From a virus, in the IMG/VR virus record IMGVR_UViG_3300048592_001387, positions 1 to 23,782 of that record: a stretch of DNA of 23,782 nucleotides. The stretch is one strand, 5' to 3'. Positions within the stretch are counted from its first letter, which is position 1. Each line of letters opens with the position of its first letter. Positions 4,908 to 23,782 of this stretch are shown in pieces. Made by a program: the position numbers and the translations under genes. Below the pieces are notes generated by a model. That model made no database searches and was not told where the DNA came from. It saw nothing but the letters and a program-made list of their open reading frames with translations.

Positions 4908-4939
4908 CAAATATACGGAAAAAACTTGAATAATACAAA
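4908..4939 (-). promoter_or_regulatory. Leftward promoter for the capsid operon
   Basis: On the minus strand a TTTG (plus 4936-4939) is followed after 20 bp by TATATTTG (plus 4908-4915), counting from the TTG. This matches the Bacteroidota-type -33 TTTG and -7 TAnnTTTG promoter elements. Transcription would begin close to 4900 and run into the protease gene. The rightward promoter uses the same spacing, and the two overlap face to face. Confidence 0.6.
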
Positions 4940-4956
4940 TAATTTAGGTATATTTG
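4926..4956 (+). promoter_or_regulatory. Rightward promoter for terminase and portal genes
   Basis: TTG at 4926-4928 and TATATTTG at 4949-4956 are separated by 20 bp, as in Bacteroidota-type promoters. The region from 4948 to 4966 is an imperfect inverted copy of 4898-4916, so the two promoters form a near-symmetrical dyad centred near 4932. Initiation would fall near 4963, leaving a leader of about 60 bases that contains the second palindrome before the terminase small-subunit ribosome binding site. Confidence 0.6.
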
Positions 4957-4995
4957 TATAGGAGGGCAATAAAATTTTGTATTTTTATTAAAATG

Positions 4996-5010
4996 CCTAA
5001 TAAATTTAGG
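4996..5010. promoter_or_regulatory. CCTAA-N5-TTAGG palindrome, right operator-like site
   Basis: CCTAATAAATTTAGG is a perfect 5-bp inverted repeat with a 5-base spacer. It lies in the leader of the small terminase gene, 5 bp before its GGAGG ribosome binding site. It is the partner of the site at 4872-4886. A protein bound here could block transcription, and the same DNA may be the packaging recognition site. Confidence 0.6.
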
Positions 5011-5025
5011 TTATTGGAGGAAAAA

Positions 5026-5340
5026 ATGAGGGCTAAGAAAGAAATACCTATCGAAAAGCAGGTTGAAAAACTTGCGTCTTACGGACTAACCAATAAAGAA
5101 ATAGCAGAAGCACTTGGATTTGATGACAGTACCCTGAAAAGGAAATTTGAGAATTTTCTGACAAAAGGGAAGGCTAACCTTAAACAGCGATTAAAGAGAA
5201 AGCAGATTGATGTAGCACTTGGCGGAAATGTGTCTATGCTTATCTGGCTGGGTAAACAGTATTTAGGGCAAGCTGATAAACTGGATGAGAATGGGGAGTA
5301 TGAAATAGTGATCAATCGAAAAGAAGTTAGTGGTAAGTAG
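5026..5340 (+). CDS. Terminase small subunit-like HTH protein
   Basis: I choose the ATG at 5026 (104 residues) because a perfect GGAGG lies 5 bp before it. The frame is open back to 4954, but the upstream codons overlap the promoter and operator palindrome and lack a ribosome binding site. The N-terminal part carries a helix-turn-helix (YGLTNKEIAEALGFDDSTLKRKF, about residues 15-37), followed by a basic helix (KANLKQRLKRKQIDVAL) and GNVSMLIWLGKQYLGQ. This pattern is common in small proteins placed directly before a large terminase gene, where they recognise the packaging site. The large subunit starts 15 bp after its stop. It may also act on the two palindromes beside its own promoter. Confidence 0.75.
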   Translation: MRAKKEIPIEKQVEKLASYGLTNKEIAEALGFDDSTLKRKFENFLTKGKANLKQRLKRKQIDVALGGNVSMLIWLGKQYLGQADKLDENGEYEIVINRKEVSGK

Positions 5341-5355
5341 TGAGTAGTTGGTAGG

Positions 5356-6672: not shown

Positions 6673-6696
6673 ATGTTCAAGGTTCAATCTTCAATG
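6666..6696. repeat. (A)ATGTTCAATG tract at the end of the terminase gene
   Basis: Units of the type ATGTTAAATGTTCAAGGTTCAAT extend from the last terminase codon through its TAA stop into the gap before the portal gene. The tract belongs to the same family as 3813-3845 and 19801-19834, and gives stops in several frames. Confidence 0.55.
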
Positions 6697-6716
6697 AAAG
6701 AACAAAGAGGAATTAA

Positions 6717-7895
6717 ATGGCAGCAATAACAACAAGCAGGACTATTACAACTGATCTTGCAACAAGGGATAGGTTTGATTTGACTACAACCTATACAAAT
6801 TTTTTACCTGATCCAGATAAGATATTGATTGAGAATGAATATGATTATGAGATTTACCGGGATCTTCTTCTTGATCCGCATTTAATGGCTACGATACAAC
6901 AAAGAAAAATGCAGGTGATGCAATTGGAATGGGAGATTGAAGCGCAAGGGGCAAAGAGCATAGGGCAGAGGGGAATTACAGAAGAGTTAGAGCAGGTTTT
7001 TGAAACTATAGATTTTAATGAACTTGTATCTGAGATAATGGATGCAATTTTCTTTGGATATTCTATTGTAGAATTGACCTGGAAAAAAGATGGGAAGATT
7101 TTAAGACCTGATAAGATTACAGGCAAGCCTCAAGAGTGGTTTATCTTTGATAAGAATAATGAACTGAGATTAAGAAAATACAAACACGGATTTTATTTGT
7201 TTGAAGAAGGTGAAAAGCTTCCTCCTTATAAGTTTATACTAACACAACATAAACCTACGTTCACAAATCCTTATGGGGAAAAGATACTAAGCCGGTGTTA
7301 CTGGCCGGTTACACTAAAGAAGGGCGGAATAGAGTACTGGCAGTTAATGATGGAGCGATATGGAATGCCTTATCTGATCGGGCGTTATCCGAATACATTT
7401 ACAGCAACACAAAAAACTGAGTTCTTAGAGCAGCTTAAACAGATGGTAGTTGATAACATAACCATATTTGATGAGGCACTTGGGATTGAGTTAAAGGAAT
7501 CACCGCAATTTGATATAGGGCAGTTGTATGAAAACTTAGTGAAGTTCCATAACAGGGAAATAAGCAAAGCTGTTTTAACTGTTACATTAACTACTGAAAT
7601 TGAAAAGACTGGCAGCTATAAAGCAGGTGAAGTGCATAAAGAGATGCTTCAGTTTTTGGGAGAGAGTGACAGAAAGCTTGTTGAAACATCACTAAATAAA
7701 ATTATTGATTATTACTGCGAGTTGAACTACGGAAATATAGAACGACCAAAAATAAAATTACTGGATAAAGAAAAAGTGATTGAGGAAAGCGTGGATAGAG
7801 ATAAAGCTTTAACTGATATGGGAGTTAAGTTTAGTAAGGAATATTTTATGAAACGTTATAAGCTTAGTGATAATGACTTTTCACTGAATGTTTAA
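6717..7895 (+). CDS. DUF935 / Mu gp29-like portal protein
   Basis: The 392-residue product is a portal of the DUF935 (Mu gp29) family, which forms the ring at the capsid vertex through which DNA passes. Diagnostic stretches are DPHLMATIQQRKMQVMQLEWEI (about 53-74), the DAIFFGYSIVELTW helix (about 107-120), NPYGEKILSRCYWPVTLKKGG (about 183-203) and YWQLMMERYGMPYLIGRYP (about 205-223). An AGAGG ribosome binding site lies 6 bp before the ATG. In Mu-like modules the next gene is usually a gp30/gpF head-morphogenesis protein, followed by further head and tail genes. Here coding stops and a 900-bp repeat-filled gap begins. The stop codon is again inside an ATGTTTAATG tract (7887-7909). Confidence 0.85.
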   Translation: MAAITTSRTITTDLATRDRFDLTTTYTNFLPDPDKILIENEYDYEIYRDLLLDPHLMATIQQRKMQVMQLEWEIEAQGAKSIGQRGITEELEQVFETIDFNELVSEIMDAIFFGYSIVELTWKKDGKILRPDKITGKPQEWFIFDKNNELRLRKYKHGFYLFEEGEKLPPYKFILTQHKPTFTNPYGEKILSRCYWPVTLKKGGIEYWQLMMERYGMPYLIGRYPNTFTATQKTEFLEQLKQMVVDNITIFDEALGIELKESPQFDIGQLYENLVKFHNREISKAVLTVTLTTEIEKTGSYKAGEVHKEMLQFLGESDRKLVETSLNKIIDYYCELNYGNIERPKIKLLDKEKVIEESVDRDKALTDMGVKFSKEYFMKRYKLSDNDFSLNV

Positions 7896-8805: not shown

Positions 8806-9285
8806 TTATTCAAATGAAGGTAATTCAGTGCTTATTGCATTAGCAATTCTTAATTTTAGTTCCTCAGAATAATCTGCTTCATAAATTATTGATGTGATAA
8901 TTCCTAATAAAAAGTTTCTATCAATTACACCAGCAGCTAAATGATAACTAATATTTTCCATCTCGCGTATAAATTTGCTGGTAACAAACATATATCCATT
9001 ATCCAAAAGAAATTGTGCACCTAAGGTAATTGAGATTCTTTTATTGCCATCTTCAAAACAATGAAATTTATTTGCACTAAAGACTAGGTGGTTAAGTTTT
9101 TCTTCAAAGGTTGGATAATAATCATCATTTTGAATATGCTGTAAAACGCTTTCCAATTTTCCTATGTCCAAAATACCAACTGAACCACCACCACTAACTT
9201 GTACAGTGAGTTTATGAGTTTCAATGACTTTTTCTATCGAAGGATAAATCAACTTATTCCCGTTCTTTAAGACGTTTGAAAACAT
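8806..9285 (-). CDS. Doc-family (Fic fold) toxin
   Basis: The 159-residue product contains the Fic/Doc active-site motif HCFEDGNKR at residues 75-83, fitting HxFxDxNKR. The lysine after the asparagine is as in Doc rather than in AMP-transferring Fic enzymes. Doc proteins stop growth by phosphorylating elongation factor Tu; whether this one does so is inference. The segments GGSVGILDIGKLESVLQ and YPTFEEKLNHLVFSANKFH before the motif are typical of the family. The ATG lies 32 bp inside the upstream HTH gene. A TTG at 9250-9252, 1 bp beyond the upstream stop and preceded by GGGAA, would give IYPS near the N terminus and is a good alternative start. No small Phd-like antitoxin gene is adjacent, so the HTH protein may be the partner. 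This is the last gene of the leftward island. Confidence 0.8.
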   Translation of the reverse strand: MFSNVLKNGNKLIYPSIEKVIETHKLTVQVSGGGSVGILDIGKLESVLQHIQNDDYYPTFEEKLNHLVFSANKFHCFEDGNKRISITLGAQFLLDNGYMFVTSKFIREMENISYHLAAGVIDRNFLLGIITSIIYEADYSEELKLRIANAISTELPSFE

Positions 9286-10273
9286 CTTTCATTTCTTCAA
9301 GACGCTCAGATAAATCTTTACTCTTTTCACCCAGAAATCTTTCAAAATCTTCTTTTGGAATTGATGCTACATAATCTTTTAAACGTAAATGTAAAGCATC
9401 TCTAAAACCAAGATCTCTGGATGCCATTTTAGTACGAACATCTTGCAATTGGGGAACCCATAATCTTTGATTTTCAAAATCACTATAAAATTTGTCAACT
9501 TCAGAAGGGCGTAATTTTCGACCAAGCTTTGCATATTGATCTCTTAGCACTTGTGCAAAACCTACTTCAAAACTTGAAATAATTAAAAGGACTTCACTAT
9601 ACATTGTGTCGCGAACATTCTCTTTAGAGTGAAGATTTAAAATTTGGCGATATTCCTGAGCATTTTCTTTGAATATACTCTGATAAATTTTATTCGTAAA
9701 AATTGGATATTTTGCTTTACCCATTTCAACATAATCTCTAAGAGCATCAGTAAATTCTTTACGATAATCCTCACCACGTAAATAATTAACAATAAAATCT
9801 TCATCACGCTGATTTATGTACTTAGTACCGCCGCCAGTTTTTTTATTGACGGTATCTATAACAATATCAAGAATGACGCTACGTAGGGTTTTAGCACGCT
9901 CACTTTCAGTTAAAAGCATAGCTAAGTTAAGAAAAGAGCGGAAGTTAAAGATGCCGAGATTAACTACTTTGTGAACGACATTGATGTCGTCCACACCCGT
10001 CGATTTAATAGCTAACTTAAAGTCCTGTAAGCGTTTACCGCGTAGGACTTCGTAACCATTATTAGATAATTCATTTGAAAATTGTTCTAAATAACGATCA
10101 ATAGTGCGTGGATCAACTTCAAAAAAAGCTGAAACTTGATCTTTTATAAACTTATATTCATTCTCAAAAAGGATACCGATTAAACCAACAGCTTTACGAA
10201 TCTCTTCTATTGCATACTGATTGTTTAGAATATTTTGTCGATCAATTTGAGAGTTTGTTAAATCTTTAGACAT
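9254..10273 (-). CDS. HTH protein partnered with the Doc-like toxin
   Basis: The 339-residue, mostly helical product has a likely helix-turn-helix at about residues 43-64 (IKDQVSAFFEVDPRTIDRYLE), followed by a basic LRGKRLQDFK segment. A second half contains KENVRDTMYSEVLLIISSFE and VRTKMASRDLGFRDALHLRLKDY, and the C-terminal end (KDLSERLEEMKDVFKRLKERE) is coiled-coil-like. I recall similar proteins next to Doc-type genes, annotated only as DNA-binding proteins. The toxin ATG lies inside this gene, so the two are translationally coupled. That arrangement suggests an antitoxin or autoregulator, but I cannot assign it to a named antitoxin family. It is 45 bp after the 204-residue gene in the same leftward run. 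Confidence 0.65.
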   Translation of the reverse strand: MSKDLTNSQIDRQNILNNQYAIEEIRKAVGLIGILFENEYKFIKDQVSAFFEVDPRTIDRYLEQFSNELSNNGYEVLRGKRLQDFKLAIKSTGVDDINVVHKVVNLGIFNFRSFLNLAMLLTESERAKTLRSVILDIVIDTVNKKTGGGTKYINQRDEDFIVNYLRGEDYRKEFTDALRDYVEMGKAKYPIFTNKIYQSIFKENAQEYRQILNLHSKENVRDTMYSEVLLIISSFEVGFAQVLRDQYAKLGRKLRPSEVDKFYSDFENQRLWVPQLQDVRTKMASRDLGFRDALHLRLKDYVASIPKEDFERFLGEKSKDLSERLEEMKDVFKRLKERE

Positions 10274-10318
10274 AATGAAAAATAAATTTATTGATACTTA
10301 TAATACTAATTTTTGCAA

Positions 10319-10933
10319 TCAGAATTCGGATTCATCTTCTATAAGATTATAACATCCTGAGTTGATCCAACTTTGTGCATTACAACTTGCAGGGCTAGTA
10401 TCCATTAAGATTTTAATAATATCTAATTTATCTTGATCTAAATCAGGATTAGTTGTACGCCAGAGTGATATAAAGAGTGTACTACCTGAGCCTAATACTT
10501 TTGATAATAATTGATAAATTTCTTTACGAAAGTGTTTTGATAATTCTTCTAATGCTTTTGAAGCATTAAAATTTTCCGGTAGTTTATTTTCTTTTGGTTT
10601 TATATTTAACTGATAAAAACGACCAAGAGTAAATTCATCAATTTTTAATACTTTTAATAAATGATCGTAATTAAATTCAGTTTGTTTTTCAAAAGACACT
10701 TTGCAGAAATCTTTATAAAAAACACCAAAAGCCACGAATAGTATTTTTAATTTAATGAGTTCAAGATTATTGGAATATGAAGTTAGGTTTAATTCGGATA
10801 ATTTATCCCAAACCTTTTGAGCGAATGCAACTTCTTTGTTTGTGCCCATAATGTTAAACATAGAAATAGCAGCATCTTTTATGTTAGTCCAAGTTAATTC
10901 TTCTTCATTTATCACCATCGTATCCAAGCTCAT
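10319..10933 (-). CDS. Unknown protein in the defence island
   Basis: The 204-residue product is helical and soluble-looking, with no signal peptide, membrane segment or catalytic motif that I can identify. The sequence begins MSLDTMVINEEELTWTNI. It includes a Lys/Glu-rich middle (NIKPKENKLPENFNASKALEEL is longer than the useful core, which is NASKALEELSKHFRKEI at about 123-139) and ends in a Cys/Ser-containing tail (ASCNAQSWINSGCYNLIEDE). It lies between the PIN/SEC-C gene (112 bp upstream) and the HTH-Doc pair (45 bp downstream) and is co-directional with both. It may be a regulator, antitoxin or accessory factor of that subcluster. No function can be stated. Confidence 0.6.
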   Translation of the reverse strand: MSLDTMVINEEELTWTNIKDAAISMFNIMGTNKEVAFAQKVWDKLSELNLTSYSNNLELIKLKILFVAFGVFYKDFCKVSFEKQTEFNYDHLLKVLKIDEFTLGRFYQLNIKPKENKLPENFNASKALEELSKHFRKEIYQLLSKVLGSGSTLFISLWRTTNPDLDQDKLDIIKILMDTSPASCNAQSWINSGCYNLIEDESEF

Positions 10934-11045
10934 TGTAAGACAATTTTTTTAATATTTGCTTAATAAACTTAAAATATCTGACTTTGTAAGAAATTTATTA
11001 TTTGGAATAAAATAAGTAGGATAAATTGTATTCCATTTTCTTTAA

Positions 11046-12323
11046 TCATTTACTTTCTTCTATTCCAGACCGGTAACAACACTCCCCAAATTTTTTACCA
11101 CTTCCACAGGGGCATTGATCTTCTAGGGTGATTTGATACTCATAGGAAATAAAATCAATATCCTCATCTCTAAATACTTCTCCAGGATCTGTTTTCATTT
11201 CTTCTACAGAGGAAATTCTATCTTTTATTTCCGAAACCCGCTTCTCGTCCTTTTGTGGCATTTCTGTCTTTCTGTAAAACCACCCTGGATTCCAAGAAGG
11301 CAAATATTTTTTCCACATTCTGTATGCTAAACACTTCTCGTCATTCGGTGGCTCTAAAGAAAAATTTGTAGTCCACTCCAATTTTAATTCTTCATCTTCT
11401 TTTTCAAGTAAACCAATGATAAAATTCAAATCAGCTTTGAGATCATCACCGTCAATAAATGTTTGGTCATCTGTTAATAAAAATGGAGCTAAATCCTTAT
11501 GAAATTTATCGCGGGATGAGAATATATTACAAAAGGGTAAATAATATAAATATTCGGAATCGATTCTATTAGTTGATCTTGTGGTGATCAAATTATATAC
11601 TATGCCCAATCTAAAAACAGTATCAATTTTCAATGTATAATAAAAGTAAGGTGCAAAATCCTTTATAAGTTTTGAAGGGCTACACTCCCACCTATAAAAT
11701 ATTTGTGTCGCTAAGGTTTGATCAATCCCAAATGCTTCGATAACTCCAGCAAGTATCTGTTGTTGACTGATGGGATTATTTATATAATTTTCAGAAATCG
11801 CAATAAGTGTAGGTATATCTTTACATTCCTTCACACTTTCTTTCACTTTAGCAAATTGTTTTTTTGCAGACTCCAAATCAATTTCTTTTGTATAGGCCCT
11901 CCATTCAGCCGCAAGTTTTTTCTCTGCTTCGCTAAAATTTCCTTTTTGCCAATTTCTGACTGCTTCCTGTTCAGGTAATTCAGACATAATTACACCAATT
12001 TTCCCAGACTTGTCCTTAACTTTTTTCCCACCACCTACGAGTGGTCTCCGAGAATCTAAATAATCAACTCCCATTAAAGATGATACAATTAAGGAACTAT
12101 AATGAACGTTATGTGCATTGTCTTTTTGAATTAGTTTATTAGCAATCTCAATTACTTTTTCTTCATTCAATGCTTCATCTTTGTTTGCTTTTTTAAGATC
12201 AGCCAAAATTTCCATTATAAGCACTGAAGGAATATTTACATAGTATAATTTATTTAATAGGATTAGCTCTTTTTTTGAAAGAGCTTGAAGGCTTGATTTA
12301 TCTAATATTATCGTTGGTCCCAT
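11046..12323 (-). CDS. PIN-like domain protein with C-terminal SEC-C zinc motif
   Basis: The 425-residue product begins TIILDKSSLQALS and continues with NIPSVLIMEILADLKK (30-45). The first acidic residue (D8) and E38 after the second strand fit the opening of a PIN-like nuclease fold. The last 24 residues hold a SEC-C zinc motif with C404, C406, C415 and C416 (CPCGSGKKFGECC), which usually mediates protein or nucleic acid contacts. The roughly 350 residues between them are helical and unrecognised. A nuclease-plus-zinc-tail product inside a restriction-modification cluster suggests an effector, perhaps an RNA-cutting toxin, but the remaining PIN acidic residues cannot be fixed by eye. It follows the Res gene by 50 bp. 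Downstream 112 bp separate it from the next gene. Confidence 0.65.
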   Translation of the reverse strand: MGPTIILDKSSLQALSKKELILLNKLYYVNIPSVLIMEILADLKKANKDEALNEEKVIEIANKLIQKDNAHNVHYSSLIVSSLMGVDYLDSRRPLVGGGKKVKDKSGKIGVIMSELPEQEAVRNWQKGNFSEAEKKLAAEWRAYTKEIDLESAKKQFAKVKESVKECKDIPTLIAISENYINNPISQQQILAGVIEAFGIDQTLATQIFYRWECSPSKLIKDFAPYFYYTLKIDTVFRLGIVYNLITTRSTNRIDSEYLYYLPFCNIFSSRDKFHKDLAPFLLTDDQTFIDGDDLKADLNFIIGLLEKEDEELKLEWTTNFSLEPPNDEKCLAYRMWKKYLPSWNPGWFYRKTEMPQKDEKRVSEIKDRISSVEEMKTDPGEVFRDEDIDFISYEYQITLEDQCPCGSGKKFGECCYRSGIEESK

Positions 12324-12373
12324 AAATAGAAATGTAACATTAAAATTAAATCTGACAGAGATTTAGTTAGTGT

Positions 12374-14887
12374 TTACTCGCTAAATATCTTATTGATTGC
12401 ACTCTTCCATTCATCACCAAATATTACTTGAAACTCAAATTGCTGCTCTGGAAAATCCAATCCAAGTTCATTCCATTTCATCCTAACACCAACATCGTTA
12501 CAAAGCTTAAATACATTTTTCTTATATGTTGTGTCCTCATTTTTCAAATGAATACCTTTTGATTCCAGCACGAAAATACTATCATAATCATTTTGTTTTT
12601 TGGCTTTACCGGATGCAATGAAATCCGGATAAATTTTGTGTTTCTTCCAACCTTGAATACTATAATCTTGTCTTGAAATATTTCTATACCACCAGAGTAA
12701 TTTTTCTTGTTCATCAAGATATAAAGCTACTGACTTTTCTAATTCATTTAGCCCCTCCTCAGGAACATACTGGAGCAGACTTTTCATCAAGGGCGAATTA
12801 TCACGACGTGGTAATGACTTATTACTCCTGATTGTTATTCTACTAGGTAAAACGAATGCACCATTTTCTGTGACTAAGAAGAAATGCAGTTTTTTATCAT
12901 CAAGTAATTTTCTGAATACATCTTCAGCTAACCTATCTTTTTCCTTCTCGAGTATCTTTTTCAATTCTTCAATTATGAAAACAAAATTTGATGCTGTTTT
13001 TTCTTTGCCGTCTTTCTTAATGAAAATGTTGATTGCTTTCCTGCCAATATCGTAAGCAATCCAGGGATTTGGAATAATGTCAATAATCTGTCTGGTTAGA
13101 AACACTTCATTTATTTCTAGTGTACCTGATTTTATTACTCTTTGATGTTCCTCGAGAAAATTATCACCGTCAGAAATACCATAAGTTATTTCTTCTTCTT
13201 TTACTTTGAAATCTGAAAGCGAAATGTCTACTAAATTTGTAAGCTTAATTTTATTCCAATCAATATTCCCAAGTATATCCACGTCATAATTTAGGTCTCT
13301 CCAACTTCCTTTTTCTTGCATCACAAATTTTGGAAGATATATCTTACCCTCATATCTTTTGAATTGCTCGCGATAAATTATATTTCTTTCTTGTAAAATA
13401 TCACCATTCACAAGATCACCCGATTCAACAGCTATTCTGCCGGCTATGTCTCCCAATCCTTCTGACTCAAGACCAGTTTTAATATTTCTAACGAGCTCGC
13501 TTGCATTTTCTCTGAAACAAAAAACGTAGCATTCATCTAATTCTTTAATTTGAGTTTTCCTGGCATAAGGTTGTCGTAAAATTCTTCCAACAAGTTGAGT
13601 GATGCTTAATTGAGATGTGGGATTAGTAAGTATAGCCAAAATGTAGGCAAACGGACAATCCCATCCTTCTTGTAATGCTTGCTTCGTAATAATATACCTT
13701 ATTGATGTTATATCGGATAGGAGGTCGATACCTTCTATATCATCCTTTTCACTCGACTTAATTGCAATTTGCTCTTCCGGCACAGAACACTTTTTAATTA
13801 AATACTCTTTTACATCCTCGGCGTGAATAAACTTTGCAGTTCTTTGATCTTTACCAGTTCGTTCAACCTGGATAAGGATTATGGGTCTAATATATTCGTT
13901 GGTATTTGCTTTATAATCATTCGCCTTCTTTTCTAATTCGTTTCTTCTTTCAAACGCAGCTAAAAGTGTGTCTTCCCATTTTAATGTCGATTTATTTATT
14001 AAATGTATGTCCAGCTTAATCATATCCTCAGAGTGTAAATCTTTGCCAGAAACTTCAACTAATTTATTTGAATATGGTGGGGGAGTTGCAGATAGTTCTA
14101 ATACAATCGAAGGATTAAAATCTCTTATTGTTTTTCTGGCTGTTTCACTATAAGCTTTATGCCCTTCATCTATTATTACAATCGGTTTAAGAATCTTAAG
14201 TGTATTGCCCAAAGAAGTTTTAACAATTCTCCCAAAAAATTCCTTTGTGGTGCCAAAGTGATCTAAGTTTGGAAATTGACGGAGATAATTTTCGTGTCCA
14301 TCATAATCTTCCTCAGATGGAAAAAAATCTGTAAAACCTCCCCGATCCTTAAATACTTTAAGCGTTTCTTTATTTTGTCTGCTTGCAGATGGCAACATCA
14401 GTAGAAGTATTACAAGACTCTCTTCAATATCCTGTTTAGTGAAGATGTCATTTTTTTCTTTAATAAGAGTTCTCCCACCGCTTGATATATCGAGAACTTG
14501 TCTATATGGATGTTCTCTGTCTCTTAACCCGGATAAAGTTTGTCTGTAAATTTGCGTGGATGGAACTATCCAAAGGACTAAGCCGGTTTGTTTTTTAAGA
14601 TAAGTCTTGTTTATAAGATCTATTGAATGACAGGCTAATAAAGTTTTGCCTCCACCAGTTGGAACTTTCAAATAAAAATCAGGTAAGGGCTCTTCCAAAC
14701 CATTTTTCTTTTTTGTATAAGCACCGCCTACGATTTTTTCCCAGGCTTTTGATGGAAAGTCAAACTCTCTACCGATTTCAGGATCTACTTCGAGTGCTTT
14801 ATAATATTTCTGACGAGATTCTACAAGAGCATCCAAGTAACTCTTTACTTTTTCAAGAACCGTTACCTGATAAGATTTCAATTCCAT
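12374..14887 (-). CDS. res: Type III restriction enzyme Res subunit (helicase-nuclease)
   Basis: The 837-residue product is the restriction subunit of a type III system, which translocates or slides with Mod and cuts DNA between unmethylated sites. The superfamily 2 motor shows Walker A PTGGGKT (76-82), DEGH (240-243) in place of DEAH, SATPP (266-270), the TKQALQEGWDCP region (401-412) and motif VI QLVGRILRQ (431-439). A C-terminal PD-(D/E)xK nuclease is visible as P754-D755 in YPDFIASG and E775-x-K777 in FVLESKG. All key residues are present, so it should be active. It starts 6 bp after the Mod stop, and the order mod-res in one operon is standard. Its length is somewhat below that of EcoP1I/EcoP15I Res. 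Confidence 0.9.
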   Translation of the reverse strand: MELKSYQVTVLEKVKSYLDALVESRQKYYKALEVDPEIGREFDFPSKAWEKIVGGAYTKKKNGLEEPLPDFYLKVPTGGGKTLLACHSIDLINKTYLKKQTGLVLWIVPSTQIYRQTLSGLRDREHPYRQVLDISSGGRTLIKEKNDIFTKQDIEESLVILLLMLPSASRQNKETLKVFKDRGGFTDFFPSEEDYDGHENYLRQFPNLDHFGTTKEFFGRIVKTSLGNTLKILKPIVIIDEGHKAYSETARKTIRDFNPSIVLELSATPPPYSNKLVEVSGKDLHSEDMIKLDIHLINKSTLKWEDTLLAAFERRNELEKKANDYKANTNEYIRPIILIQVERTGKDQRTAKFIHAEDVKEYLIKKCSVPEEQIAIKSSEKDDIEGIDLLSDITSIRYIITKQALQEGWDCPFAYILAILTNPTSQLSITQLVGRILRQPYARKTQIKELDECYVFCFRENASELVRNIKTGLESEGLGDIAGRIAVESGDLVNGDILQERNIIYREQFKRYEGKIYLPKFVMQEKGSWRDLNYDVDILGNIDWNKIKLTNLVDISLSDFKVKEEEITYGISDGDNFLEEHQRVIKSGTLEINEVFLTRQIIDIIPNPWIAYDIGRKAINIFIKKDGKEKTASNFVFIIEELKKILEKEKDRLAEDVFRKLLDDKKLHFFLVTENGAFVLPSRITIRSNKSLPRRDNSPLMKSLLQYVPEEGLNELEKSVALYLDEQEKLLWWYRNISRQDYSIQGWKKHKIYPDFIASGKAKKQNDYDSIFVLESKGIHLKNEDTTYKKNVFKLCNDVGVRMKWNELGLDFPEQQFEFQVIFGDEWKSAINKIFSE

Positions 14888-14893
14888 TCGGGA

Positions 14894-16660
14894 CTATTCC
14901 TTTATCCTATAAATTTCAAATGGAAGCTGACAATATTCAATTTTCAGATTTAAGAGGGTATGAGTATCAACGTATTTTGCAGGCGCAAAAACTAATCGCT
15001 TCTTACCATTTTGTTTTCCGAGAGATTCAGCTAACTTAAGTGTCAACGCAGTGTGCCGCAAATATTCTATGTCAGGCTTGTAGAAAAGATATACTTCATA
15101 ATCTTTTGTCTCACCAATAAAATTTTTCCTTTCGTTAACTTTTTTAGGATTGAATTGTTCACCAGTTGCTGTATAAAACACATATCGAGCAAGATCATTA
15201 TACTCAGGTAAATTATTCCCTTTTAATATGTTCTCCATCTCAATCGGCTCACCAAGTTCAAAGAAACTAAAATGGGATTTCTTAAAGATGTTAATCTGAC
15301 TAGACTTTGAAAATCTTAAAAGTCTTTCTTTTGCTATATCAACTATATATTCGAGTTTGGTTCCATCATCTAGTACAAAGGGTTTGTCTTTAACAAGAGT
15401 TTTAGTTTCTCCTTTTTTGGGTTTATTTAATTCAACACCAGTGATTTTGTTGACATAAACCTTTTGTTTAATTTTTTCAGGAATTTGTATCAGAATATAT
15501 TTTCTATTTCCTTCATCCTTTTCATTCAGCTCAATTGTTGCTTGGGCTGTTGTACCACTGCCAGCGAATGCATCCAGTATAATATCATTCTTTTTGGTAG
15601 CTATCTCCAAGATCTGCTTTATTAACTTAACTGGTTTAGGATATGTCATTGGGCAAAAACCAAATATTTTTTTTAGGTCTTTTTTCCCATCACCAGTAAA
15701 GGCAAGCTTGTGGAATAACGTTGAAGGTTTTCTCCCATAAGATAAAAGTGTTCCGTCTTCATCGATAACAACTTCTTCCTTCTGCTCATTGATATATTGT
15801 TTGTAATAAACCTCCCAATCATCTTCATCATTCTTTTCAAATACAATTCTATCTTCACTTATTCTTTTATTAAATTTATTTTCATCACAGCGCCATCTGT
15901 GTTCGTCTCCAATAAGTAATGTGCCATCTGGGCATTCAATATCATAATGAAGTCCAGGTCTATCTCCTATACTGAAATCGTTAAGATTTCTTAAAGTGTG
16001 TTTCCCTCTAGTTTGAACAAAGTCATCTTCCAGATCGTATGTCTGAAGCATTCCTTCTGAAGGTGGAAGATTTAAGACCCTGAACTTATGATGTTTAATA
16101 TCTCTCGCATAAACAAGCAAATATTCGTGTGCTACAGCTATATGTGCGGTGTCGTTACCACCACCTGCGTTTTTCTGCCAAATGATTGTGGCCACATAAT
16201 TCTCATCACCAAATACTTCATCAAGTAACAGTTTCAAATTATTAACCTCATTATCATCTATTGAGACAAAGATGATCCCGTCTTCTTTCAAAAGCTCTCT
16301 TAATAACTTTATTCTTGGCATCATCATACACAACCATTTATCGTGTCTTGTTAAATCCTCTTTATCAACAACTTTCCCAAACCATTCTTTAATCATTGGG
16401 CTGTTCACATTATCATTATAAACCCAGCCTTCATTACCAGTATTATATGGTGGATCTATATAAATACATTTAATCTTGCCAGCATAAGTTGGCAGCAAGG
16501 CTTTTAATGCTTTTAAGTTATCTCCGTGTATTATTAGGTTATCGTGCAAACTTACATTATCAGTTAGGCTTAACTCTGGTTGCGGTACCAACTGGTGATA
16601 TTTTACTGCCAGATGGTGGTTGTAAACGAAGGATTTACCTTTGAAGTTTAGTGTTGGCAT
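14894..16660 (-). CDS. mod: Type III DNA adenine methyltransferase (Mod subunit)
   Basis: The 588-residue product is an N6-adenine DNA methyltransferase of the beta class. The catalytic DPPY motif (DPPYNTGNEGW, 69-79) comes before the SAM-binding DAFAGSGTTAQ motif (363-373). The target-recognition region lies between them, roughly residues 190-330, and sets the sequence specificity, which cannot be read by eye. IIFVSIDDNEVNNLKLLLDEVFG (129-151) is typical of type III and related Mod proteins. With Res it forms the restriction complex, and alone it modifies host DNA. The ATG at 16660 is followed by an N-terminal segment usual for the family. It begins 33 bp after the DUF262-HNH gene. Confidence 0.9.
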   Translation of the reverse strand: MPTLNFKGKSFVYNHHLAVKYHQLVPQPELSLTDNVSLHDNLIIHGDNLKALKALLPTYAGKIKCIYIDPPYNTGNEGWVYNDNVNSPMIKEWFGKVVDKEDLTRHDKWLCMMMPRIKLLRELLKEDGIIFVSIDDNEVNNLKLLLDEVFGDENYVATIIWQKNAGGGNDTAHIAVAHEYLLVYARDIKHHKFRVLNLPPSEGMLQTYDLEDDFVQTRGKHTLRNLNDFSIGDRPGLHYDIECPDGTLLIGDEHRWRCDENKFNKRISEDRIVFEKNDEDDWEVYYKQYINEQKEEVVIDEDGTLLSYGRKPSTLFHKLAFTGDGKKDLKKIFGFCPMTYPKPVKLIKQILEIATKKNDIILDAFAGSGTTAQATIELNEKDEGNRKYILIQIPEKIKQKVYVNKITGVELNKPKKGETKTLVKDKPFVLDDGTKLEYIVDIAKERLLRFSKSSQINIFKKSHFSFFELGEPIEMENILKGNNLPEYNDLARYVFYTATGEQFNPKKVNERKNFIGETKDYEVYLFYKPDIEYLRHTALTLKLAESLGKQNGKKRLVFAPAKYVDTHTLLNLKIEYCQLPFEIYRIKE

Positions 16661-16693
16661 AATTTATACTTTAATATTCTTTATTGACTTTTA

Positions 16694-18445
16694 TTATTCA
16701 TCCAGATCATAAGATGATGGAATCATTCCACAATAGCTTAGAAGTTCCTTAGACCATTGAATACATTTTTCCTGCGACCAGTTTTTATCGATATACAAAT
16801 TATTTAATAATTTTTCTCCTCCCTTGATAAACTTCCTTCCATCACCGTGATAGGGTGTTGTATTTATCAAATAACCCTGTCCCTTAGTCCAGAATCTTAT
16901 GGGACACATTGAAGGTTTTAATTTCCCTTTTCTTATTAACCAGTTAGCGGTTTCAACGAGAACACCTAATGAATTTTTGCAATGAATTCTGTCACCATCA
17001 ATTGTTATTATTCGTTCAACGTGCCTTCTTGTTCGCCTAACTACTGTCCCGCCTGTGGGATGCACACCAGTTGGTATTTCCTGTCCACGCTCTCTCGCAT
17101 TATTACAAAATCTATGAGTTAATCTCGCATTCTCTGGAATAGTTTGCCCACCTTTCCAATACTGTTGAATATGATCTACCGCAGCATCATCTAACGAACT
17201 AATTTTATTATTACATAAAGCACAATATGGATTAGCCTTAAATAATTTTTCTTTAAGTTTTAATGAAAATAAGCGAGGCTCCCTATCAGAAATATTTACA
17301 ATCTCATCAAGCACCATATTCCATTTTGAAAACCTTGCAGTTATTGCTTGCTTTGAGCTAGTTGACAATTCAATCGAATCTACAAACCCCTGGTCGGAAG
17401 TCATTAAATTTATATATGCTTCTCTGATAGCATCCAGATTCTGATATACTTTATTTTTATCCCTTCTTGCAAATGAATCCATAAGAATATCATATAGCGA
17501 TGCATTAAATTTCTTTGGTTCCCAATATCCGTTAATCGAACGAGAGTCACCCGGATAAAATCTTTTGAAAGCGTGCTCACCTAACATTGATTTAATTGTT
17601 GTTATCGCATTCTTGAAAGCAATTCTTAACTCCGTAGCATCCCTATCAGAGATATTTCTATTCTTCTCCATCTCAGTGTTTAGAAACTTTTTAATGGGAG
17701 ATTTGTAATTAAGGTAAGTGTTATGATAAAAAGAAGCAAAACGTAGGACTAGTTCAACATCCCTCATTCTTTTTTCTGGCTTTTTTATTCCCAATAATTC
17801 CTGAAATATTTTTTCCTGCGATAATTCCCAAAGCAGATCGTTGTACTTCCCTCTGTAAATACAATTTCTTAATTCCTGATCATTCAATGATACCGATCCA
17901 GTGTTTAGTCTTTCAAAGACTTCAAACTTCAATTCTTGATCAGATTCTTTTCTAAAGGTTATTGTTCTAATTTTGTAATAGAGAATTTTTTCTTGTAATT
18001 GTTCCGGTAAATCTTTGAAGTATTTACCTGAAAGTTCAGTGAATACATTAAGTCCGGCTAATCGAAACTCTTTACCAAAAGGCAATTGCGGGTCAGGAAG
18101 TGTTCCATTGATAAATGAAAAAAATGAAGTTAATCTCTGTTGGCCATCGATAACATATTCTTTTCCGTCTTGTTCCTGGGATAAATAAATTATCGGAAGA
18201 GGAATGTCCAGCAAAACAGATTCTATCAATCTACTTGCTCTTCCAATATCCCAAACAAATCCTCTTTGGAAATCTGGCTGAACATCGAGTCTACCTCTTT
18301 TCCATTTTTGATGAAGCGAGGTAACTTCCGGATCACCCTGATCAGTAAAAACGTTACGTTTGTTGCTTTCAACTACTTCATCTGATTCCGCAGTGGTTTG
18401 TTCGATACTAAGTTCGTTATTGTTTTCTTCCATTACCCAAGCCAT
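16694..18445 (-). CDS. DUF262-HNH nuclease-like protein
   Basis: The 583-residue product pairs an N-terminal DUF262/ParB-like NTPase domain with an HNH nuclease, the arrangement known from GmrSD and BrxU-type defence enzymes. The DUF262 part shows LDVQPDFQRGFVWD (53-66), RLIESVLLDIPLPIIYL (72-88) and the signature DGQQRLTSF (100-108). The HNH part shows C408-x2-C411, D424-H425 and N439, then H444 and C447. A C-terminal extension of about 125 residues (459-583) with GDRIHCKNSLG and GYLINTTPYHGDG is unrecognised and may confer target recognition. It is the first gene of the leftward island, starting at MAWVMEEN. ATG at 18443-18445 or the in-frame ATG four codons later are both possible, and neither has a strong ribosome binding site. 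A role in restricting modified phage DNA is inferred. Confidence 0.8.
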   Translation of the reverse strand: MAWVMEENNNELSIEQTTAESDEVVESNKRNVFTDQGDPEVTSLHQKWKRGRLDVQPDFQRGFVWDIGRASRLIESVLLDIPLPIIYLSQEQDGKEYVIDGQQRLTSFFSFINGTLPDPQLPFGKEFRLAGLNVFTELSGKYFKDLPEQLQEKILYYKIRTITFRKESDQELKFEVFERLNTGSVSLNDQELRNCIYRGKYNDLLWELSQEKIFQELLGIKKPEKRMRDVELVLRFASFYHNTYLNYKSPIKKFLNTEMEKNRNISDRDATELRIAFKNAITTIKSMLGEHAFKRFYPGDSRSINGYWEPKKFNASLYDILMDSFARRDKNKVYQNLDAIREAYINLMTSDQGFVDSIELSTSSKQAITARFSKWNMVLDEIVNISDREPRLFSLKLKEKLFKANPYCALCNNKISSLDDAAVDHIQQYWKGGQTIPENARLTHRFCNNARERGQEIPTGVHPTGGTVVRRTRRHVERIITIDGDRIHCKNSLGVLVETANWLIRKGKLKPSMCPIRFWTKGQGYLINTTPYHGDGRKFIKGGEKLLNNLYIDKNWSQEKCIQWSKELLSYCGMIPSSYDLDE

Positions 18446-19784: not shown

Positions 19785-19959
19785 GTGGCGAGAAGTTAGA
19801 AAATGCTCAAGGTTCAATTATCAATGTTCAATGGTGTAAGAAGTGAAACGAAAAACGGGAGACGAGAGAAGTCAAAGTATGCAATAGACAATACGCAATA
19901 GGCAAACAAAGTAAGACATAAAAGCAAATAAATAAATTATCAATCTAATTGGAGTATTG
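19785..19959. other. Short gap with ATGTTCAATG and GCAATA tracts before the integrase
   Basis: A degenerate AATGCTCAAGGTTCAAT / ATCAATGTTCAATGG tract (19801-19834) is followed by GCAATAGACAATACGCAATAGGCAA (19880-19904 region), another low-complexity repeat. No TAnnTTTG promoter box is evident, so the integrase operon may be transcribed from upstream of the 57-residue gene. Confidence 0.5.
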
Positions 19960-20943
19960 ATGCAAGACGCATTGAATAATATTAGTTCACAGTTAAAAAC
20001 AATGATCAAACAATCACTACAGGAACTATTGATTGTAGAGACGGTAAAGATAGAGTTGATGCAATTTAAAAATCAGATAATGGCTGCTTATGAATTGACT
20101 AAATCAAAATCATATTTGATCTCTATAGACTTATCATTTAATCATTTAATAGATTTTTTCGGGCCAATGATGGATATAAAAAATATAGGTGCAAAAGAAA
20201 TTGACGCATTTATGAAGCACTTAATGATAAAAGTACCTAAAGGTTATAGAGTTTATTACAGAACATTAAAAGCGGTTTTTCAAAAGGCAGTTGACTGGGG
20301 GTATGCACAGGAGAATCCGTTTAGAAAATATAAGTTAGATAAACGACAGGTAAACAAACCGCATTTTATAACCGAAGAAACGCTATATAAAATAGTTGAA
20401 AGAATAGAAGGGAAGGCTAATAAAATCGGGTGTGACAAGAATAAAAGAAAATCTCTCTTATTAATAGCTGATATAATTTTTACTGCATTTTATACAGGTA
20501 TGAGAATTAATGAACTGATAAACCTAAGATTTAAAAATATGAACCTTTCTAAACGCAGAATTACGGTCGGTGATGAACATTTTACAACAAAAGGTCGTAA
20601 GCAGAGAATCATACCAATCTGTGATAAATTAGAAAACAGATTGGAGCAAAGACTAAATATTAAAAATAAAAATGATGAATTTGTTTTTGGCATAAGCGCT
20701 AACAGAACATTAACAAAGGATTATGTTAGTAAAACATTTAAGCAGATATGCAGAGATCTTGGAATTAGTGAAGAAATTAGATTCCACAGCCTTCGTCATT
20801 CATTCGCATCTCACTTAGCACAGCAGGGGGTTAGTCCATATCATTTAAAGGAATTAATGGGGCATTCATCCGTTACTACAACGGAAATCTATGCGCATTT
20901 AAATGAAGAAGTTCTTGAACAAGCTATTTCAAAATTTAATTAG
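19960..20943 (+). CDS. Tyrosine recombinase (phage/element integrase)
   Basis: The ATG at 19960, five bases after GGAG, gives 327 residues; a TTG one codon earlier is less likely. The C-terminal catalytic domain is complete: R182 (TGMRINELINLR), K211 (FTTKGRKQRIIP), H276-x-x-R279 (HSLRHSFASHL), H302 (LMGHSSVTTT) and nucleophile Y311 (EIYAHL). An N-terminal SAM-like core-binding domain (about 40-130) ends in YYRTLKAVFQKAVDWGYAQENP. It would integrate and excise the element. It is the first gene of an operon: the polymerase-like gene begins 8 bp after its stop. It is clearly related to the second recombinase at the right edge, especially in the KAVFQKAV region and the catalytic core. Confidence 0.9.
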   Translation: MQDALNNISSQLKTMIKQSLQELLIVETVKIELMQFKNQIMAAYELTKSKSYLISIDLSFNHLIDFFGPMMDIKNIGAKEIDAFMKHLMIKVPKGYRVYYRTLKAVFQKAVDWGYAQENPFRKYKLDKRQVNKPHFITEETLYKIVERIEGKANKIGCDKNKRKSLLLIADIIFTAFYTGMRINELINLRFKNMNLSKRRITVGDEHFTTKGRKQRIIPICDKLENRLEQRLNIKNKNDEFVFGISANRTLTKDYVSKTFKQICRDLGISEEIRFHSLRHSFASHLAQQGVSPYHLKELMGHSSVTTTEIYAHLNEEVLEQAISKFN

Positions 20944-20951
20944 GGAGTAAA

Positions 20952-22424
20952 ATGAATAGAAGAAAAAAATCTAAAAAGCGAAAAGATATGATGTGGTATA
21001 ATCCGAGATTGTATTGCAGTAATAAAAAACAAAAATCAGCTATTGAAAAATTGGTAGATGCTATTTATCCACAACTTGATATAGAAAAGCCACACTATAA
21101 TACTAAAAAGAAAAAAATGGCACTAAATGTAATTATTAGCAATGTGTACCAGGGATTTATAGTAGACAAATTTGTGGCTTTTCCATTATACAGGGGGTAT
21201 TATACCACACTTACAAATCAGAATCCTGTTTACAATACTTACCAATATATAGTATGCGGTATAAAAGCACTTATAAATTTCAAATACCTTGAGCATAAGC
21301 CACATCATTACCATTATCTATATCCTGATGATAATACGGTTAGTGGAATTAAAGCATCAAAAAAACTTATTGATGCAATAAATGAATACACTGAACCTGT
21401 GAACGTGGTGCAAAATTATTTTGACAGCGGAGAAGTTTATACTTACACTTTTAGTACTGATGAATTAGTGAATTATGATTATAGGCAAGTTGTCGAATTA
21501 AAAGATGCCAGCCCCGAAAAAAAGCTAATGGATTACAGACCCAATAAAACAAGCCTGGATTCAAAAAAATTTTTGGGCGCGTATAATTCGTTTATGCTTG
21601 GATTTGATGTGAAGATACCTATGAATAAAGTAAATCCAACCAAATATCCTTTACTTAAATATTATCCAGCTAATACAACAATAACAAATCAGCAATCAGA
21701 ATACACAACAAATATGACAGTCCCATTAATAGGATTCTGGCAAATTAACTCTGTTCTTTATAAGAAGTTAGCAGTTGTGATTAAGCGTGTGTTTAATAAT
21801 GGCGTTTTCACAGAAGGCGGGCGTTATTACGGTGCTGAGTATCAGTTTCTTTCTGAGGAAGAGAGAAGCTGGATTACGATTGATGATGAACCAGTAGTTG
21901 AGATAGATTATAAAACTTTTCATCCAAGGATTCTTTATCATAAAAAAGGGATAGACATTAAAGGAGATCTATATCTTATGGCTAATCCGGAAGTTGAACT
22001 GAGACCTGCGATAAAGAAAATGATGAATATGATGATCAATACAAAAACTGATTTTAGAGCGGTTAAAGCATTTGAAAAAGAATTGTTAGAAGATGAAAAA
22101 GGGGGTGAAATACAAACCGCAATGATAAAACACAGAGTTGATGTCTGGGATTTAACAAGAATGATACACACGGCACATAAGCCAATTGAAAAATACTTTA
22201 AGACTAGTATCGGAGTTGAGATACAATACGAAGATTCTGAATTAGCGAAGAGCATATTGATTCATTTTATGAACAAGAAAATACCGTGTTTAGTAGTACA
22301 CGATAGTTTTTTAGTGCAGGAGAAGTATAAAGATGAGTTATATGAAGTGATGATGACTGAATATGAAAAAATGTTTGACTTTAAACCTGAGTTAGAAATA
22401 AATGAAAGGAAAGAAACAATATGA
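20952..22424 (+). CDS. Palm-domain protein with family A polymerase-like motifs
   Basis: The 490-residue product is not a standard annotated enzyme, but its C-terminal half shows polymerase-like motifs in the right order. VEIDYKTFHPRILYHKKGID (316-335) resembles motif A of family A DNA polymerases (DYSQIELR), with D319 as the metal ligand. RPAIKKMMNMMIN (351-363) is in motif B position. VVHDSFLVQEKY (448-459) resembles motif C (VHDE in Pol I, HDSF in T7-type RNA polymerase), with D451. GGRYYGAEYQ (289-298) precedes motif A. There is no exonuclease domain; the first 280 residues are basic, Tyr/Asn-rich and unrecognised. GGGAG precedes the ATG, which follows the integrase stop by 8 bp. A replication polymerase or primase of the element is the natural inference. 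A catalytically different nucleotidyltransferase cannot be excluded. Confidence 0.7.
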   Translation: MNRRKKSKKRKDMMWYNPRLYCSNKKQKSAIEKLVDAIYPQLDIEKPHYNTKKKKMALNVIISNVYQGFIVDKFVAFPLYRGYYTTLTNQNPVYNTYQYIVCGIKALINFKYLEHKPHHYHYLYPDDNTVSGIKASKKLIDAINEYTEPVNVVQNYFDSGEVYTYTFSTDELVNYDYRQVVELKDASPEKKLMDYRPNKTSLDSKKFLGAYNSFMLGFDVKIPMNKVNPTKYPLLKYYPANTTITNQQSEYTTNMTVPLIGFWQINSVLYKKLAVVIKRVFNNGVFTEGGRYYGAEYQFLSEEERSWITIDDEPVVEIDYKTFHPRILYHKKGIDIKGDLYLMANPEVELRPAIKKMMNMMINTKTDFRAVKAFEKELLEDEKGGEIQTAMIKHRVDVWDLTRMIHTAHKPIEKYFKTSIGVEIQYEDSELAKSILIHFMNKKIPCLVVHDSFLVQEKYKDELYEVMMTEYEKMFDFKPELEINERKETI

Positions 22425-22699
22425 TTTCGATGTGGCAATTACAACACGGTGAAAAATATTATTGGTTTCAGACTGATAATAAAGCAGCTGCAAATAAGAT
22501 GAAACGCAGGAATAAGTTCCGGTTAGTTTCTTATGGTGTTAATTGTGATCATTGGACTTTTGAGGCAATATTTACCCGTCCTGATATTGCAAGAAATGCA
22601 CTAAAAACACTCGCAGGGAATGCTGTGAAATATGATAAAAATGATGATGTTTATTTTGCACCTATAAGAATATCGGATAGCGATAATTTGGCTGCTTAG
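22421..22699 (+). CDS. Unknown 92-residue protein of the integrase-polymerase operon
   Basis: The ATG overlaps the polymerase-like gene's stop by four bases (ATGA), so the two are translationally coupled. The product is basic in its first half (NKMKRRNKFRLVSYG) and has two compact blocks, YYWFQTDNKAAANKMKRRNK (about 13-32) and HWTFEAIFTRPDIARNALKTLAG. It has no signal peptide or zinc motif. I do not recognise the family. The alternating strand-helix pattern would suit a small nucleic acid-binding or replication accessory protein working with the gene before it. A terminator 50 bp downstream closes the operon. Confidence 0.65.
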   Translation: MISMWQLQHGEKYYWFQTDNKAAANKMKRRNKFRLVSYGVNCDHWTFEAIFTRPDIARNALKTLAGNAVKYDKNDDVYFAPIRISDSDNLAA

Positions 22700-22734: not shown

Positions 22735-22747
22735 GTATAGAAAAATG

Positions 22748-22776
22748 AGTGCTGGTTTATGGCCAGCACTTTTTTT
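22748..22776. terminator. Bidirectional intrinsic terminator between operon and second integrase
   Basis: AGTGCTGG (22748-22755) and CCAGCACT (22763-22770) form a perfect 8-bp stem with a 7-base loop. On the plus strand it is followed by a T run (22770-22776). On the minus strand a T run corresponding to AAAAA at 22741-22745 follows two bases past the stem. It ends the rightward operon, and on the other strand lies just after the leftward integrase stop at 22775-22777. Confidence 0.8.
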
Positions 22777-23782
22777 ATAAAAGACTGATTGCATTTGATA
22801 AGCTGCTTTGTGTTAAGTGTGAATATATTTGAGTTGTTTTAATATCTTCGTGGCCTAAAAGCTCCTTTACAACATATAGATTAACCCCTTTTTGAACTAG
22901 ATTACTTGCGAAGCTATGACGCAATGAATGAAAGTGAATATCATCATTAAGTTTTGCAGCACGTAACGCTTTTTTAAATTGCTTACTTACATAGTCCTCG
23001 TTGTATTTGATGTCAGCTTTACGATTAAAGATAAAATTATCACAACTTGAATTATGCTTTATGACTATTGATGCAATACGCGGATGAATAGGAATAATTC
23101 TTTCTTTCTTGCTTTTGGTTGTGAAATGATCTGAATTTTTAAGAGTTATAATATTTTGCTGAGTGTCTATCCAAGAAGATTTCATATTTAGGATTTCTGC
23201 CAATCTCATCCCGGTAAAGAAAGCTACTGAGAAAATATTTTTTAATTGTATGTCTTGAGTTTTTTCTAAGATAAGGTTTAATTGGTTTTCAGAAATGAAA
23301 ACAGGATTTGACTTTGGTACTTTAGGAGCCTTTATTTTCTTTATTGGATTGTCTTCCAGGTAATTCCAAACTACAGCTTTACTAAATGCAGCTTTTAATG
23401 TACGATAATATAGAGCTGCAGCTGATTTAGATTTGTTATACTTAGCAATAATAAAATTATCAATCGTTTTTAGGTCTAACTGCTTTAGTGGAATATCGCC
23501 AGCATACTCGATTAAAAATTTAAAAGCTGGCTCAATTGATCTTTCAACATAGCTTTTAGAGAATCTTAGTTTTGCGTAGTTGAGATATTCTTTTTTGAAG
23601 TCTGAAAGTTTGAGCAGGGGAGAATTAGTATTTTGTTTTTCCTGATTACCGGGGATAAAAGAATTTAAAAATTTAGTTGCTTCGTCTTTGTCGGATGTTT
23701 TTGTAGAGATTGTTTTACGCTTACCATTTAACTCGTAAACAACCTGATAAAACTGAGAACGTTTAATTTTAGTTAAGAACAT
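22775..23782 (-). CDS. Second tyrosine recombinase, convergent with the first
   Basis: The 335-residue product has a complete active site: R193 (TGMRLAEILNM), K223 (FTTKSKKERIIP), H285-x-x-R288 (HSLRHSFASNL), H311 (LLGHEDIKTT) and Y320 (QIYSHL). The N-terminal part begins MFLTKIKRSQFYQVVYELNG and contains an AMP-like strand region and a SAM-like core-binding domain (about 55-150). The ATG is the first three bases of the gene at the window edge, so an upstream extension and the promoter cannot be seen. It resembles the 327-residue recombinase over most of its length, for example YYRTLKAAFSKAVVWNYLEDNP. It may serve a second, adjacent element or be the resident integrase of the island. Confidence 0.9.
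   Translation of the reverse strand: MFLTKIKRSQFYQVVYELNGKRKTISTKTSDKDEATKFLNSFIPGNQEKQNTNSPLLKLSDFKKEYLNYAKLRFSKSYVERSIEPAFKFLIEYAGDIPLKQLDLKTIDNFIIAKYNKSKSAAALYYRTLKAAFSKAVVWNYLEDNPIKKIKAPKVPKSNPVFISENQLNLILEKTQDIQLKNIFSVAFFTGMRLAEILNMKSSWIDTQQNIITLKNSDHFTTKSKKERIIPIHPRIASIVIKHNSSCDNFIFNRKADIKYNEDYVSKQFKKALRAAKLNDDIHFHSLRHSFASNLVQKGVNLYVVKELLGHEDIKTTQIYSHLTQSSLSNAISLL

What the first reader, a model, noticed from the sequence alone, without database searches (positions are those of the whole stretch)
20952..22424. Uncharacterised minimal family A-like polymerase in an integrase operon
A 490-residue protein carries motifs resembling A, B and C of family A polymerases in the right order: EIDYKTFHPRILY (D319), RPAIKKMMNMMIN and VVHDSFLV (D451). 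It has no exonuclease domain and an unfamiliar N-terminal half. HDSF is nearer the T7-type RNA polymerase than the usual VHDE of Pol I. It lies in a tight operon with a tyrosine recombinase and a 92-residue protein. I have an unverified memory of similar uncharacterised proteins near integrases in other phyla. It could be a primer-making or element-replicating enzyme that is a deep branch of the palm fold.
Basis: partly seen in the sequence, partly recalled or inferred. Interest (0 to 1): 0.75.

Follow-up and report, generated by a model that had tools for sequence, protein, structure and literature searches.

The report
Mobile-element family A polymerase beside integrase
The gene encodes a small polymerase of the family A (DNA polymerase I) type, a distant member of a group first described in 2008 in mobile elements and viruses; it probably copies or primes the DNA of an integrating element, and the residues that normally exclude RNA building blocks are changed.

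Summary
It is not an unknown lineage. It matches PHROG 4756 (unknown function) at 4e-52. The profile built on its family finds AUR84708, the published divPolA2 representative (2024), along nearly its whole length. It also meets most defining features of TV-Pol, the mobile-element polymerases described in 2008, including the integrase and restriction-island setting. The best reading is a primase-polymerase of an integrating element, encoded with its own tyrosine recombinase; fold and active site are well supported, function is inferred from context. The 92-aa partner has no detectable relatives, and an SSB role is unsupported. One point deserves attention: across 61 homologues the Klenow sugar-gate residues E710, F762 and Y766 and the motif C E883 are mostly His, Leu, Asn and Ser. 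CcPol, the only assayed TV-Pol that I found, keeps E710 and F762. Substrate choice (dNTP, NTP or both) is therefore open in this branch and easy to test.

The parts
19957..20943 (+). Tyrosine recombinase (integrase), 328 aa, TTG start or ATG at 19960; first gene of the operon
   Evidence: Pfam Phage_integrase E=1.5e-35 and Phage_int_SAM_5
20952..22424 (+). TV-Pol/divPolA2-type family A polymerase, 490 aa
   Evidence: PHROG 4756 E=3.9e-52; AF2 model pLDDT 79, pTM 0.77; Foldseek to family A DNA polymerases
20952..21761 (+). N-terminal region (residues 1-270), shared in part by the family, no known domain; includes low-confidence insert 232-267
   Evidence: A3 alignment; near full-length profile match in AUR84708; pLDDT profile
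21822..21824 (+). R291, invariant hairpin arginine, aligned with the Arg of TGR in Pol I
   Evidence: 61/61 rows; hhalign register
21900..21935 (+). Motif A, EIDYKTFHPRIL, residues 317-328; D319 metal ligand; H324 at the Klenow E710 gate position
   Evidence: D319 61/61, H324 57/61; register from hhalign
21999..22043 (+). Motif B (fingers), LRPAIKKMMNMMINT, residues 350-364; R351, K355, N359 (Klenow F762 position), N363 (Klenow Y766 position)
   Evidence: R351 58, K355 59, N363 53 of 61 rows
22290..22319 (+). Motif C, LVVHDSFLVQ, residues 447-456; D451 metal ligand; S452 at the Klenow E883 position
   Evidence: D451 58/58 rows present, S452 53/61
22421..22699 (+). 92-aa protein, start overlaps the polymerase stop; no detectable relatives
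   Evidence: negative; single-sequence model pLDDT 47
22747..22771 (.). Terminator-like hairpin between the two convergent units
   Evidence: consensus scan, found on both strands
22775..23782 (-). Second tyrosine recombinase, convergent, 38% identical to the first; runs to the window end
   Evidence: Pfam Phage_integrase E=5.1e-35; BLASTP

Best explanation
The gene encodes a minimal family A polymerase of the TV-Pol kind: palm, fingers and a family-specific N-terminal region in place of the exonuclease. Shown by sequence and model: the fold, the two metal-binding aspartates, the template-side arginine and the RxxxK fingers motif. Inferred: it works with the co-encoded tyrosine recombinase as the replication module of an integrating element. 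After the recombinase excises the element, the polymerase synthesises primers and/or copies the element's DNA before re-integration. The restriction genes nearby are cargo or neighbours in the same integration hot spot. Also inferred: because the Klenow sugar-gate residues are replaced, the enzyme may accept NTPs as well as dNTPs, which would suit a primer-making role. The 92-aa protein is translationally coupled and may assist in an unknown way.
For: PHROG 4756 match E=3.9e-52. AF2 model on 30 homologues, pTM 0.77, palm pLDDT above 90. All 44 PDB fold matches at E<1e-3 are family A DNA polymerases (apicoplast Pol, Taq, Bst, Klenow, M. smegmatis, Aquifex); viral-library matches include the Rheinheimera phage Barba31A 'DNA polymerase' and the Zamilon virophage replication protein. 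hhalign with Pol I is weak (P=0.048) but collinear over 198 columns, with TGR, LQNIP, DYSQIE, RxxxK and HDE all in register. AUR84708, the published divPolA2 representative, scores 164 bits along nearly the whole profile. An integrase upstream of the polymerase in the same direction recurs in Paracoccus versutus, P. denitrificans, P. kondratievae and a Rhodobacterales MAG. Family present in 38 of 198 genomes of the order of P. denitrificans, up to 5 matches each. 11 of 20 polymerase loci carry a tyrosine recombinase within about 6 kb against 2 of 20 control stretches. Neighbours match 81 defence-system models against 5 in controls at 1e-20. Published: TV-Pols are predicted primase-polymerases (PMC2579912) and one member, CcPol with MP, is a proven primase (PMC7581432).
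Against: No activity has been shown for any member of this branch, as far as I found. No helicase lies next to the gene, unlike the D5-linked TV-Pols and CcPol. Large phages carry the family beside their own replicative polymerase in variable neighbourhoods (PMC11348598), which a replicase role does not explain. Element ends were not found: no convincing flanking repeats and no tRNA. The record ends at the second recombinase, so the unit may be incomplete.
Confidence: 0.6

Rival explanations
1. It is an RNA polymerase or a strict RNA primase of family A descent, closer in function to T7-type enzymes than to Pol I.
For: Motif C is HDSF with serine where Pol I has glutamate, and aligns with T7-type RNA polymerases at P=0.0029 over 50 columns. 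The Klenow E710, F762 and Y766 positions are His 57/61, Leu 46/61 and Asn 53/61. The divPolA2 authors raise the same possibility from structural matches to mitochondrial RNA polymerase (PMC11348598).
Against: All 44 PDB fold matches at E<1e-3 are DNA polymerases. No T7-type promoter-binding domain was seen. The tyrosine that T7 RNA polymerase uses for ribose selection is replaced by asparagine here (role of that tyrosine from general knowledge).
Confidence: 0.18
2. It is a repair or gap-filling DNA polymerase that acts on element or phage DNA without priming.
For: Suggested for divPolA2 in phages that have another replicative polymerase (PMC11348598). It is small and lacks proofreading.
Against: Tyrosine recombination leaves no gaps to fill (established mechanism). 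The association with mobile elements rather than repair genes does not suggest repair.
Confidence: 0.12
3. It is a defence or counter-defence polymerase, acting somewhat like the defence reverse transcriptases, and the integrase only moves the island.
For: Neighbours of the family are rich in defence genes (Gabija, type II and IIG systems, AriA) compared with controls. In the window the gene lies next to a type III restriction system and a GmrSD-HNH gene. In two Thioclava loci the polymerase is directly upstream of methyltransferase and helicase genes of that kind. Phages carry several paralogues in variable places (PMC11348598).
Against: No PADLOC family matches the polymerase. Defence genes are common cargo of integrating islands, so the enrichment is expected either way.
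Confidence: 0.08

Closest known systems
divPolA2 (PolA variant of barbaviruses, Vibrio and other phages; PMC11348598, 2024)
   Same: Palm with motifs A, B, C; no exonuclease; family-specific N-terminal domain; the representative AUR84708 is hit by the family profile over positions 18-400 of 404
   Different: About 26% identical over 202 residues; here the gene is in an integrase operon, not a large lytic phage. AUR84708 keeps Glu, Tyr and Glu at the three positions that are His, Asn and Ser here
TV-Pol with N-terminal domain (Iyer, Abhiman, Aravind 2008; PMC2579912)
   Same: Hairpin arginine, two palm aspartates, fingers aspartate plus RxxxK, no nuclease, integrase or resolvase neighbours, restriction hot spots; Paracoccus denitrificans and other Rhodobacterales in both sets
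   Different: Identity with the individual 2008 sequences could not be checked; the Microcystis phage Ma-LMM01 record, said to carry a TV-Pol, gives no match to this profile, so this clade does not cover all TV-Pols
CcPol-MP and the PolA-SSB primases of Bacillota (PMC7581432, PMC10061031)
   Same: Family A polymerase on a mobile element, small ORF directly downstream, recombinase nearby
   Different: CcPol is close to Pol I and keeps E710 and F762; here both are replaced. No adjacent helicase, and no evidence that the 92-aa protein is an OB-fold SSB
Bacterial DNA polymerase I (Klenow/Taq)
   Same: Fold and active-site layout
   Different: No exonuclease domains, four motif residues changed, too distant for Pfam DNA_pol_A

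Membership tests
Superfamily A polymerases | RRM-type palm with two catalytic aspartates in motifs A and C | tested here: met
   D319 61/61 and D451 58/58; 44 PDB fold matches at E<1e-3, all family A
Superfamily A polymerases | Sequence-profile match to the family A Pfam model or solved family A chains (usual, not essential) | tested here: not met
   No Pfam hit; PDB profile search finds no polymerase; hhalign P=0.048 only. The sequence is too diverged; the structure carries the assignment
TV-Pol | Beta-hairpin with absolutely conserved arginine before motif A | tested here: met
   R291 in strand 289-294, 61/61, aligned with TGR of Pol I
TV-Pol | Fingers module with conserved aspartate and RxxxK | tested here: met
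   D339 57/61, R351 58/61, K355 59/61
TV-Pol | Thumb of two antiparallel helices | tested here: inconclusive
   One clear helix 199-215 in the model, neighbouring insert 232-267 of low confidence; domain boundaries not resolved
TV-Pol | No nuclease domain; integrase, resolvase or transposase neighbours | tested here: met
TV-Pol | Direct match to the sequences named in 2008 | tested here: inconclusive
   P. denitrificans, named there, has one locus matched by the profile, downstream of an integrase and split over two frames, but the 2008 accession was not checked; Ma-LMM01 gave no match; Zamilon, a virophage related to Sputnik, is a weak fold match
divPolA2 | Homology to AUR84708 along the whole protein | tested here: met
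   164 bits, profile positions 18-400 of 404; direct BLASTP of the window protein E=3e-11
PolA-SSB primase (CcPol-MP type) | Downstream small protein with OB fold | tested here: inconclusive
   Single-sequence model pLDDT 47, strands alternating with two helices rather than an evident barrel
PolA-SSB primase (CcPol-MP type) | Adjacent helicase (COG3378 or DUF927) | tested here: not met
   No such helicase in or next to the operon; the only helicase seen is the type III Res protein of the restriction system

The most novel reading that the evidence does not exclude
This branch of family A has lost the dNTP sugar gate as a group (E710 to His, F762 to Leu, Y766 to Asn, with E883 to Ser) and works as an RNA-making or mixed NTP/dNTP primase-polymerase of mobile elements, a third route between Pol I and T7-type RNA polymerases. 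It also unites divPolA2 of phages with the integrase-linked TV-Pols of bacteria.
Probability: 0.3. Interest if true: 0.65.

Novelty: new member of a known kind. Interest (0 to 1): 0.42.

Why it matters
TV-Pols were proposed in 2008 to stand near the root of family A DNA and T7-type RNA polymerases and to be primase-polymerases. As of 2020 only CcPol had been assayed, to its authors' knowledge, and that one is close to Pol I. This branch is far from Pol I, common in mobile islands and large phages, and consistently altered at the residues that choose deoxyribose over ribose. Testing one member would show whether family A palm enzymes prime and copy element DNA without a dedicated primase, and which sugar they use.

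Tried and rejected
Sequence search for a solved relative: phmmer and profile search of the PDB gave nothing relevant. A viral-contig scan with the single protein found nothing; the 9-row alignment had no stretch conserved enough to scan with; a 3-row core alignment and a motif A DNA pattern worked, and all 17 pattern loci held a family member. Relatives of the 92-aa protein: none in phages, plasmids, viral contigs, Pfam, PHROG or NCBIfam. Relatives of the whole cassette through the integrase: none in viral contigs. Element boundaries by repeats: only short imperfect repeats, none flanking convincingly. An attachment tRNA: none. Tree placement of the window protein: end branch 2.15, no well-supported set holds it, nearest rows from Rhodobacterales; placement unsure. 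A defence-gene identity for the polymerase itself: no PADLOC match. The idea that it is a T7-type RNA polymerase: not favoured, because the fold search gives only DNA polymerases. The host of the record was not identified.

Full report
What was claimed.

What is there. The ORF 20952-22424 is present, with the motifs at the stated residues. The recombinase ends 8 bases before the polymerase start, with GGGAG between, and the polymerase stop overlaps the next start as ATGA. A terminator-like hairpin at 22747-22771 separates this unit from a second, convergent tyrosine recombinase, 38% identical to the first. The window is a 23.8-kb viral-collection record. Its left part carries Mu-like head genes and its middle a defence island with type III restriction and GmrSD-HNH genes.

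Family. No Pfam or NCBIfam model matches; PHROG 4756, of unknown function, does at 3.9e-52. tblastn finds 31 phage records (Vibrio, Aeromonas, Pseudoalteromonas, Shewanella and Pseudaeromonas) and three alphaproteobacterial plasmids, all below 60% identity. A core alignment and a degenerate motif A pattern brought in Rhodobacterales, Phyllobacterium and more viral contigs. Among 61 collected rows R291, R305 and D319 are invariant, D451 is invariant in all rows that reach it, and R351/K355 almost so. The window protein is a lone long branch; its best identity to any row is 26%.

Fold. AlphaFold on 30 homologues gave pLDDT 79 and pTM 0.77, with the palm and fingers mostly above 90 and a few uncertain N-terminal stretches. 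Against the PDB all 44 matches at E<1e-3 are family A DNA polymerases. TM-scores are low (about 0.25-0.35 by query length), as expected when only the roughly 280-column polymerase part is shared. Sequence profiles alone are weak: hhalign with 30 bacterial Pol I sequences gives P=0.048, but the one alignment runs collinearly through TGR, LQNIP, DYSQIE, RxxxK and HDE, while an unrelated control (a recombinase alignment) gives P=0.3 over 12 columns. I could not measure the D319-D451 distance; D319 ends strand 313-320 and D451 sits in the 446-456 hairpin, as in a family A palm.

Known kinds. The 2024 paper on polymerase swapping in phages described divPolA2: palm, no exonuclease, a new N-terminal domain, role unknown, possibly an RNA polymerase. 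Its representative AUR84708 is matched by my profile over positions 18-400 of 404 with 164 bits. The 2008 TV-Pol paper described mobile-element polymerases with the hairpin arginine, palm aspartates, fingers aspartate and RxxxK, no nuclease, and neighbourhoods of integrase, resolvase or transposase in restriction hot spots, including Paracoccus denitrificans and other Rhodobacterales. The features I could test are met apart from the thumb, which is unresolved. That divPolA2 and this part of TV-Pol are the same family is my inference; neither paper states it in the text that I read. The link to the individual 2008 sequences is unproven, and the Ma-LMM01 phage, said to carry a TV-Pol, gave no match.

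Context test. The order of P. denitrificans shows the family in 38 of 198 genomes, up to five matches each. I fetched 20 such loci and 20 control stretches from the same genomes. A tyrosine recombinase is present in 11 of 20 against 2 of 20. At 1e-20 the neighbours match 81 defence-system models, among them Gabija, type II and type IIG systems and AriA, against 5 in controls; BglII-type restriction genes also appear. Many of those models overlap, so the number of systems is smaller. An integrase immediately upstream and in the same direction recurs in Paracoccus. This is the setting of integrating islands.

The unusual point. In register with Klenow, E710 is His in 57 of 61 rows, F762 is Leu in 46, Y766 is Asn in 53, and E883 is Ser in 53. 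The only two rows with Glu at the first position, both from related Vibrio phages, also have Glu at the last. E710 and F762 exclude ribonucleotides in Pol I, and CcPol, the one assayed TV-Pol that I found, keeps both and prefers dNTPs. The register rests on a weak but collinear alignment. Whether this branch uses NTPs, dNTPs or both is therefore a real and testable question.

Mechanism, with the status of each step. Family A fold and an intact active site: well supported by model and conservation. Co-expression with a recombinase: shown by gene layout only. Replication or priming of an integrating element: inferred from context and from CcPol-MP. NTP use: inferred from residues. Role of the 92-aa protein: unknown; no relatives and a poor model.

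Verdict. It is a divergent new member of a known kind.

Noticed in passing
window 8806-18445 (-): A run of defence genes: Fic (8809-9285) with a PDC-M59A homologue (9257-10273), a SEC-C protein (11049-12323), type III restriction Res and Mod (12377-14887, 14897-16660), and a GmrSD-HNH gene matching NsnA and PD-T4-2_A models (16697-18445).
   Followed up: partly
window 2306-7895: Mu-like head genes (Portal_Mu, terminase, capsid E, a weak Mu-like protease match) in two opposite directions, suggesting a rearranged or degraded prophage left of the defence island.
   Followed up: no
window 22775-23782 (-): A second tyrosine recombinase, convergent with and 38% identical to the first; two recombinases may mark two nested elements or one element with two enzymes.
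   Followed up: partly
L002 5614-11246; L013 7257-13255: In two Thioclava species the polymerase gene lies directly upstream of a methyltransferase and helicase pair that looks like a type III restriction system, recalling the one in the window.
   Followed up: partly
L017 2081-4148; L019 6720-8786; L004 4930-6786: Paracoccus copies: the P. denitrificans gene is split into overlapping frames while the P. kondratievae and P. versutus ORFs are longer, so some copies appear to be decaying.
   Followed up: no
L010 3398-4672; L051 25472-26761: Two Vibrio phage members are the only rows with Glu at both the gate position and the motif C position, the Pol I-like state.
   Followed up: partly
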